Shown here: positions 21,901-24,900 of the stretch, in pieces
How the letters are laid out: every line of letters begins with the position of its first letter
How positions within the stretch are numbered: the first letter of the stretch is position 1
Source: Owenia fusiformis
Lineage: Eukaryota > Annelida > Polychaeta > Sabellida > Oweniidae
Direction of reading: 5' to 3'
Length of the DNA: 64,000 bases
Assembly (NCBI GenBank): GCA_903813345.2
Contig: CAIIXF020000007.1
Location: 32,165,564 to 32,229,563 of the forward strand
Made by a program: the position numbers and the translations under genes
The notes under the pieces: model-generated
Told to the model about the DNA's origin: nothing
Seen by the model: only the letters and a program-made list of their open reading frames with translations
Database searches by the model: none

Positions 21901-24900
21901 GAGATGAAAACTGATCTGATTTTTCTTTTGAACTAAATGTTTGAAAAAGATTATTCTTGAAATCTGAGAATTTCTGAGCCAAAGGTTGTATCAATATTTC
22001 GTACACTCCTCAAAAATTATGTCAGATGTTTGCTGGTCAAAATAGTTAAAATGATAGAGAGGGCTTCTTGAAGAATTCAAATATTCAAAACCTCTGATTT
22101 GTTGTCTTAGAAGGCACAGAGAAGCTTCAGTGATGTACCTATAGAGCGCCATCAAGCGAACAGAAAGAACTTCCGTCGAACTCTTAGCTTTCCGCTACGT
22201 ATATCAGTACGTATTCCTCTCGGCACTTAAACATTTCATGGTTTGATTTGGATTTATTCTCTTTGGAAACTAATAAAAGAAAATATGCTGTTATCTTATT
22301 TTTGATATTTAGTGTGAAATATATATTGAGAAATATATTGAATCTTAATATTAAGCCATGATACTTCGTAGCTGATTCATATGCTCATGAGGTTCATATG
22401 ATAAGAAGTTCATGAGTATGATAAGGTCTAATGTATTTCTGTTGAATAAACATGAAAAAATATATATCCACAGATTTTTTCTGTATATATCTTTAGATTC
22501 AAAACCTGTGAATTCATTATAAAGATTCTTCAGTTAGACTGGTGAACCATGAATGTTTTAGTGCTGATGCAATGTCCAGATGTTGTAAATGTCCGAGATT
22601 GCTGCCGATGACTCTTCCTCGCTTGAATTATAAACGTTGACATGCATACATATAAGTTTAGACTTGGTTATTGGTAATTGGTTCTATACAATGTGTAATT
22701 GTATATTGGATGATATTTTATGTTCCCCTTGTTATGTTTGTTTGTTTTGCGGGATATTATTTGACGAGTCTGTAACATGTTATGTCGTTACGATATTAGT
22801 AATTATGAGCCTAATCATTTTGTACACCTATAATATCAGGTCTAGTATTTAATAATTACTATCAACAATCCCAAATAAATTGATATTAACAGTGAATACC
22901 TTTTGTCTGAACTTCTTTCTTCCTTCCAAGCCTGCACAAACTACCAGGCAGAAGTACATGTAGTTCTCAACATACCAATACAGTCGGTAAATCTTTTGAA
23001 TAATGCCATGATTTTGGAAACTCAAAATGTTTTAAGATTTCCAAATGGATTCACTTCATAATATATAGTTAGGATATAAAAGTAATTGTCAATAGAAATA
23101 ATTATTTACTCAATATGAACCAGTTTAATGAAATTATTGTCAATTTTTGATATCTTTGATAAAATGAAATAATATTCAAAATTTGATAAAATGCCGACTG
23201 TAGTGGTATGTTAAAGATTTCCACTGCCATAGTGGTTGAAGCCCCCTGTCAGTATTCCATATCAATAAAGCCTAATACAATTATCCTACATCATTAATCA
23301 TTACTAGAACTTGCTGCCTCTGCTTTTATGATCCTTCTGTTACCCAGAATCCTTTGGGTACCGTCTGCTATCCCATGGGGTGAATTCTAAATGCATAACT
23401 CCTGTCATGGAACAGGGAAAATACCATCATGAATAAATGCATATTTTTTTTATATCAGGCTCATTTGATGCTTCCCATAGACACAACAATCCAGAGAAGA
23501 ATAACATGTTTTGGAAACTATATAAACTAGCAACCATTATTATCATGACTTAATTAAGCGACATCTATAAGTATTTCTGATAGGTATAAAACTGTACACA
23601 TTGGAATAATTTACATTAGTTTATTTGCCAATATTTTACAGATGCCTTCTATAGCAATGCTATGCTTGCTTCTCCAAATCTATGATTTCATCATCTCTTT
23701 CGATTCTATGCTTCATGTTTCTCAAGCGTGAATATTGTTTAAAAAATACCTGAGTTAATCGAATAAAGTATGATTTGTAATTTTGTCACACATCTTTTTT
23801 AAAGAGATAATAACTGATTTGAGAAACAGTTTTAGTTGTCATCTCCAAAGTGTCATCTTATACATTGAAAATTGAAAAAATCCATATGTGAATCGTAGGA
23901 AATCCATACAATTTATTTCGTTTAAATTATTTATTCACTTAATATAGCAAATGCATGAAGAAATACAATAACATGTTTGTAAAAAAGCTTAAAAGACATA
24001 AAATGTTGTACAGTGATTTTTATTAGAAGTTAATGAAAAGTTAATAAATATTTTGTTTTTGATTACAGACGGAGAATATCCCTCCCTATGAAGTAGTGCC
24101 TTCTATGAGGCCTGTAGTTCTTATCGGGCCATCTCTCAAAGGATATGAAGTGACAGATATGATGCAAAAAGCACTTTTTGATTTTCTGAAGCATCGCTTT
24201 GAAGGAAAGTAAGTTCACTGAGATTTTATATTTATTGTTTTTGCAACATTATTATTGAAAACATTTTCTTGCTCCAAAGTTTGGTAGCCTACATGCATTG
24301 TATATGAATTAGTGAATCCTTTTAACTGAACATGAAAAAGAATATATGAAGTAAATGTAATTTTAGACATTCACCTTATTTTCTTCTCTGTTGTTTTTGT
24401 TTAGATACAGAATGTCAAATACATAATTGTAAAATGAAATACAAGTAGCCCTACATTATTGAATGCAACTGAATTCTTCAAAAAGGGGAATGCCCATTAA
24501 TGTTTATTAATTCAAAAATATGATATTTTAGAATAACTATAACAAGGGTGACTGCGGATATTTCTCTTGCAAAACGTTCGCTACTAAACAACCCGAACAA
24601 GCGACCGATAATCGAACGTACCAATAGTAGATCTTCTACTATAGGTAAGTTTTAAAAAATATATTATTTCCACATTTCTAAGCCTATGTAAAATGTTCTC
24701 AATTTCAATTTTAAGAACAACAGTAATGTAGTTTGAATAAGTGGCAATGTTCTGTATATATACAGCATCCAACACAATGACTGGAGTGACACACATGGAT
24801 GACAGTCCCTCCCCCACTCCTAGCCCCACAAAGGTGGTGCACAATCTTCGCTGGAAACCTAAGCCGAAACTTCCAAGTTCACCTCCACCCAACATGTGTA

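What the first reader, a model, noticed from the sequence alone, without database searches (positions are those of the whole stretch)
24766..24897. Pro/Ser-rich cassette exon inserted inside the CaV-beta guanylate-kinase domain
A 44-codon open segment with exact splice sites and phase 1 on both sides lies between RSSTI and AEVQGEIER. That join is seamless in the vertebrate beta subunits, and the GK domain is the part that holds the channel's alpha-1 linker. The insert has an acidic and SPSPTPSP half, then a basic WKPKPKLP and SSPPP half: possible proline-directed kinase sites and an SH3-type ligand within an otherwise rigid fold. Skipping it gives a standard protein, so splicing could switch beta function.
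Basis: partly seen in the sequence, partly recalled or inferred. Interest (0 to 1): 0.7.

Follow-up and report, generated by a model that had tools for sequence, protein, structure and literature searches.

The report
Predicted optional exon in calcium-channel beta
An animal calcium-channel helper gene seems to carry an optional 44-amino-acid insert inside its most conserved domain, but no transcript has been seen and the evidence from sequence alone is moderate.

Summary
Skipping it gives a GK domain that aligns to vertebrate CaV-beta in one stretch with one extra residue; including it adds 44 residues and splits the match. As an exon it is credible, not proven. Its donor is the weakest of nine scored; phase-matched exon-like segments scoring as well are expected about 0.06 times per intron of this size, but a looser test gives 0.60. 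Its 52% GC recurs in non-coding DNA only in one cluster that itself looks exonic. The donor is tripled in a perfect 51-bp tandem array; copies 2 and 3 lead to a stop. Passages of a Lymnaea and an Aplysia paper report no GK splice. No animal genomes could be searched.

The parts
24532..24644 (+). Upstream GK exon (e9), ends RSSTI + 1 nt (phase 1)
   Evidence: tblastn to CaV-beta2, boundaries, PDB match
24645..24765 (+). Short 121-nt intron before the candidate exon; retention gives a stop after GKF
24766..24897 (+). Candidate cassette exon, 132 nt, adds 44 residues
   Evidence: chance tests
24890..25045 (+). Perfect 51-bp tandem array (3.1 copies) starting in the last 8 nt of the exon; carries three identical donors (GT at 24898, 24949, 25000)
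   Evidence: Tandem Repeats Finder; donors and reading frames
26765..26916 (+). Downstream GK exon (e10), AEVQGEIER...VSSPK; holds the codons equivalent to beta3 D270 (26830) and D272 (26836)
24069..24208 (+). First GK exon (e8), starts phase 0; holds the codon equivalent to beta3 D194 (24156)
27150..27245 (+). GK exon e11
27597..28475 (+). Last exon (end of GK, C-terminal region, stop TAG)
14921..15037 (+). Exon 3 ([11 protein letters not shown]...)
16254..16376 (+). Exon 4 (SH3 part)
16662..16795 (+). Exon 5 (SH3 part)
19580..19665 (+). Exon 6 (HOOK), 86 nt; best exon-like candidate in its intron; restores an open frame from exon 3 to the stop
19822..19961 (+). Exon 7 (HOOK, polybasic [10 protein letters not shown] end)

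Best explanation
24766-24897 is a real but weakly defined alternative exon of an invertebrate CaV-beta gene, placed in the intron between exons 9 and 10. When skipped, the protein has a standard GK domain. When included, 44 residues rich in Pro, Ser and Thr, likely disordered, are looped out at beta3 position 247/248, on the degenerate nucleotide-site loop. The alpha-1 groove should still form, so the insert would leave channel binding mostly intact and change what else docks on that face of the GK domain: RGK GTPases, kinases or SH3 proteins. Shown: open frame, phases, splice dinucleotides, position relative to the RGK-contact residues. Inferred: that it is spliced, that it is optional, that the fold tolerates it, and which partner is affected.
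For: Equal phase-1 borders and 132 nt keep the frame. Segments of equal phase and equal or higher score: 3 other loci in the non-coding sequence on both strands, 0.057 expected per 2.12 kb. GC 52.3% against a non-coding mean of 32.9%; the 53 of 54,308 windows that reach it form one cluster that itself scores as the best exon candidate. The same scoring put exon 6 first in its intron, with the phases needed. The insertion splits the match to 22 CaV-beta PDB sequences exactly between two conserved blocks without deleting either. All three RGK-contact Asp residues are kept, and RGK-like proteins are reported from Aplysia, Crassostrea and Capitella (passages of PMC4081519).
Against: No transcript evidence. 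Weakest donor of nine, second weakest acceptor of ten. A test without the phase condition gives 0.60 chance loci per intron of this size, and 229 of 7,345 open non-coding windows match its codon score. Within this gene, one of the eight other introns holds a phase-compatible candidate scoring higher (22114-22206, 10.4 against 7.0). Its third-position GC (0.53) differs from the gene's (0.38). Passages and sections of the Lymnaea paper place splicing in the N-terminus and HOOK, and passages of the Aplysia paper list only alternative starts for beta. No relative of the downstream GK exon was found in the two collections scanned, which hold no animal genomes.
Confidence: 0.5

Rival explanations
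1. Pseudo-exon: a GC-rich open stretch of intron with passable splice dinucleotides that is never, or only by error, spliced in.
For: Weak donor; 0.60 loci as good per 2.12 kb if phase is ignored; ordinary codon score (229 of 7,345 windows); motif content near what shuffles of the peptide give; third-position GC unlike the gene; no GK splice reported in the snail and Aplysia passages seen.
Against: GC outlier shared only with another exon-like cluster; phase-matched chance expectation 0.057; three accepted exons of the gene score no better on the same scale.
Confidence: 0.27
2. Poison-type exon: it is included in some tissues, but competition among the three identical donors of the tandem array often uses the second or third, which reads into TAA and gives a beta subunit cut inside the GK domain or a decayed mRNA, so the array tunes beta dosage.
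For: Donors at 24898, 24949 and 25000 are identical over 8 exonic and 12 intronic bases printed; use of the second or third ends after [13 protein letters not shown]. Truncated CaV-beta forms from exon 7 skipping are described in snail and vertebrates (passages of PMC3972191).
Against: A perfect 100% array is likely recent or unstable, so the effect may be polymorphic; no transcript data; the array may be mere intronic satellite.
Confidence: 0.08
3. Constitutive, lineage-specific exon: always included in this species, so the GK domain simply carries a fixed disordered loop.
For: Nothing in the sequence demands skipping; the short 121-nt upstream intron is compatible with routine splicing.
Against: Weak donor; the skip join restores a GK match in one stretch to 22 PDB CaV-beta sequences, as expected if the skip form is in use.
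Confidence: 0.12

Closest known systems
CaV-beta HOOK exon 7 alternative splicing (Lymnaea LCaVbeta and vertebrate CACNB genes; PMC3972191, abstract, passages and sections 6-7 seen)
   Same: Same gene family; optional coding sequence changes a flexible part; exon phases around exons 6 and 8 agree with this window (exon 6 ends phase 1, exon 8 starts phase 0).
   Different: That splicing lies outside the SH3 and GK domains; here the segment is inside GK.
Alternative starts of CaV-beta in Aplysia, oyster and octopus (PMC5818475, passages seen)
   Same: Mollusc CaV-beta isoform diversity; the same paper reports cassette exons in CaV2 alpha-1 and alpha-2-delta.
   Different: For beta it lists only alternative N-termini, no internal insert.
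RGK GTPase (Gem, Rad, Rem) docking on the CaV-beta GK domain (PMC9074095 and PMC4081519, passages seen)
   Same: The three contact Asp residues are kept in this protein and the insert lies between them in sequence.
   Different: No isoform-specific switch by an exon within GK appears in the passages seen; the link here is by position only.
Disordered alternative exons of signalling proteins (general knowledge, recalled)
   Same: Frame-preserving, Pro/Ser-rich, phosphorylation-type motifs, at a surface loop.
   Different: Splicing and phosphorylation are not shown here.

Membership tests
CaV-beta (CACNB) subunit | Conserved N-terminal GSAD... domain (Pfam PF12052) | tested here: met
   E 1e-21, residues 1-41
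[quoted passage not shown]
   Guanylate_kin E 2.5e-44; best PDB matches of the skip form are CaV-beta chains, E 2.4e-110; 158 of 193 identical to human beta3
CaV-beta (CACNB) subunit | SH3 domain before the HOOK | tested here: inconclusive
   No Pfam SH3 match at E 0.01, but exons 4 and 5 align to the SH3 region of a recalled beta2 sequence at 65% and 58% identity
CaV-beta (CACNB) subunit | Exon 6 ends phase 1 and exon 8 starts phase 0 (PMC3972191) | tested here: met
   Exons 19580-19665 and 24069-24208 with open frame throughout
Cassette exon | AG/GT borders, equal phases, length a multiple of 3, open frame | tested here: met
Cassette exon | More exon-like than chance for the region | tested here: inconclusive
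   0.057 expected with phase condition, 0.60 without; GC outlier
Cassette exon | Both inclusion and skipping junctions in RNA | not testable with these tools
   no transcript data; no genome held for the window
Cassette exon | Conservation in related species | tested here: inconclusive
   neighbouring GK exon searched in viral contigs and genome contigs: none confirmed of 21 and 244 pattern matches; these hold no animal genomes; the 43-residue insert is too short for the tool
SH3 ligand | Class I or class II PxxP consensus beyond chance | tested here: not met
   one class I match, 20% of shuffles do as well; no class II
Proline-directed kinase target | [ST]P sites beyond composition | tested here: inconclusive
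   5 sites, 6.0% of shuffles reach 5

The most novel reading that the evidence does not exclude
A splice switch inside the GK domain of an animal CaV-beta that gates RGK-GTPase (or other non-channel partner) docking without touching alpha-1 binding, so that neurons or muscle could make channels immune to RGK inhibition by including one exon; and whose inclusion depends on a tandem-repeat array that multiplies its donor, with frame-ending outcomes for all but the first copy.
Probability: 0.08. Interest if true: 0.65.

Novelty: new variant of a known kind. Interest (0 to 1): 0.36.

Why it matters
CaV-beta isoforms set calcium-channel number and gating. In the papers seen, splicing alters the ends and the HOOK while SH3 and GK stay fixed (PMC3972191). 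An optional loop inside GK would show that the core itself can be tuned, and its place between the RGK-contact residues gives a direct test of whether splicing can separate channel binding from GTPase inhibition. If it is a pseudo-exon, the finding is ordinary.

Tried and rejected
Relatives: the downstream GK exon was scanned against viral contigs (21 pattern matches, none confirmed) and genome contigs (244, none confirmed); these are not animal collections, so this says nothing on conservation. Text search for four peptides of the insert and join found 0 papers. Duplication of another exon of the window: the insert peptide and DNA match only themselves at meaningful level in the window (best other tblastn E 0.39; blastn of the exon only itself). 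Retention of the upstream intron: stops after GKF. Schistosome beta paper: passages speak of an acidic N-terminus and a variant subunit, nothing on a GK insert in those passages. Actin-contact residues of CaV-beta2 (K347 to N365 in GK; passages) lie elsewhere in sequence, so not pursued. SH3-ligand reading lowered by shuffles.

The species was not identified; 'mollusc-like' is inference.

Full report
What is there. The + strand of the window carries most of a CaV-beta gene. Exons are 14921-15037, 16254-16376, 16662-16795, 19822-19961, 24069-24208, 24532-24644, 26765-26916, 27150-27245 and 27597-28475. The missing exon 6 was found by score at 19580-19665, the best exon-like candidate of its intron and of the right length. 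With it the core reads open from GSADSY to the stop, 659 residues. Pfam finds the CaV-beta N-terminal domain and the GK domain; an SH3 model does not reach E 0.01, though exons 4 and 5 align to the SH3 region of a recalled beta2. Phases agree with those published for snail and human: exon 6 ends phase 1, exon 8 starts phase 0 (PMC3972191, passage).

The finding. In the 2,120-nt intron between e9 and e10 lies 24766-24897: 132 nt, AG before, GT after, phase 1 on both sides, no stop. Skipping gives RSSTI-AEVQ; the 199-residue GK part then matches 22 CaV-beta PDB sequences in one stretch, best E 2.4e-110, with one residue more than beta2 at the join. Including it gives two stretches, 1-82 and 127-243 for the best chain, and the Pfam GK match breaks into two. 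The insert alone has no Pfam match at E 1.

Is it an exon? I scored splice sites with generic recalled matrices and codons with a model from this gene and the ASC-type channel gene of the window. The donor is -0.6 bits, lowest of nine; the acceptor 1.3, second lowest of ten. Non-coding segments on both strands with both sites at least as strong and phase 1 open: 16 besides this one; none of the 16 has as high a codon score (best 4.3 against 5.2). Codon score alone is reached by 229 of 7,345 open non-coding windows. Summed score, any phase and length: 32 non-overlapping loci, 0.60 expected in 2.12 kb; on the same scale accepted exons e5, e9 and e11 give 31, 62 and 25, so the scale is weak for real exons too. 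Summed score with phase 1 at both ends: 3 other loci, 0.057 expected; with any equal phases, 15 loci including this one. Per-intron control over nine introns of the gene, phase-compatible candidates only: best scores are below zero in six, none in one (e6-e7), 7.0 here and 10.4 for 22114-22206 in the e7-e8 intron. That last one is either a second optional exon or a warning about chance.

Composition. GC is 52.3% against a mean of 32.9% for non-coding 132-nt windows; 53 of 54,308 reach it, and all 53 lie in 3739-3922, where the best-scoring exon candidate of the non-coding sequence also lies. I take this as the strongest sign that the segment is coding. Against it, third-position GC (0.53) is above that of the gene (0.38), which plain coding constraint does not explain.

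The tandem array. A 51-bp unit is repeated 3.1 times without a mismatch from 24890 to 25045. It starts in the last 8 bases of the exon, so the donor occurs three times in identical context, at 24898, 24949 and 25000. Using the second or third adds 51 or 102 nt and ends after [13 protein letters not shown] at a TAA. Only the first donor is productive.

Where in the fold. On full-length human beta3 numbering the insertion is between I247 and A248. A review gives D194, D270 and D272 of beta3 as critical for Gem binding, at a GK site distinct from the alpha-1 pocket (PMC9074095, passages). All three are Asp in this protein; two lie 23 and 25 residues after the insertion. In an alignment to mouse guanylate kinase the point falls at the LYGTS segment, which I recall as part of the GMP site. 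So the insert sits in the degenerate nucleotide-site region and between the RGK residues, and is not next in sequence to the groove residues M196 and L200 (groove role recalled). This is sequence position only; no structure was computed.

Function. I think the insert, if made, is a disordered loop that leaves channel binding intact and alters docking of other partners. RGK-like proteins have been reported from Aplysia, Crassostrea and Capitella, and Drosophila forms inhibit channels (PMC4081519, passages), so the partner is plausibly present. The motif reading is weak: [ST]P count at the 6% level of shuffles, SH3 class I at 20%.

Literature. Seven searches on CaV-beta splicing and GK inserts showed no title or abstract start that names a GK cassette; I opened only part of the listed papers, and none whole. 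Lymnaea: splicing in N-terminus and HOOK. Aplysia: alternative starts for beta (passages). These are results against the reading in two gastropods, but do not cover this species.

Verdict. The exon is more likely real than not, the functional claim is inference, and the decisive test is junction reads.

Noticed in passing
24890-25045: Perfect 51-bp tandem array that begins inside the candidate exon and triplicates its donor; only the first donor keeps the frame.
   Followed up: yes
22114-22206: 93-nt exon-like segment, phase 0 at both ends, in the intron between HOOK exon 7 and GK exon 8 ([31 protein letters not shown]); scores above the candidate exon (10.4 against 7.0). Possible optional HOOK exon or chance.
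   Followed up: partly
3739-3922: Only other GC-rich cluster in the non-coding part; 3753/3770-3907 ends SSSQE at phase 0 before a GT and could join GSADSY of exon 3 as an N-terminal exon.
   Followed up: partly
7606-9595, 11243-11977, 24890-25045: Three arrays of unrelated-looking sequence share a 51-bp period.
   Followed up: no
24766-24897: Third-position GC of the candidate exon (0.53) exceeds that of the gene (0.38), unexplained.
   Followed up: no
57686-59473: Long uninterrupted ORF of the amiloride-sensitive sodium channel family (ASC, E 8.3e-82).
   Followed up: partly
41871-43871 (minus); 39785-40135 (minus): Reverse-transcriptase ORF (RVT_1, E 2.8e-35) and a shorter RVT_1-like piece, E 9.9e-06, below the Pfam cut-off.
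   Followed up: partly
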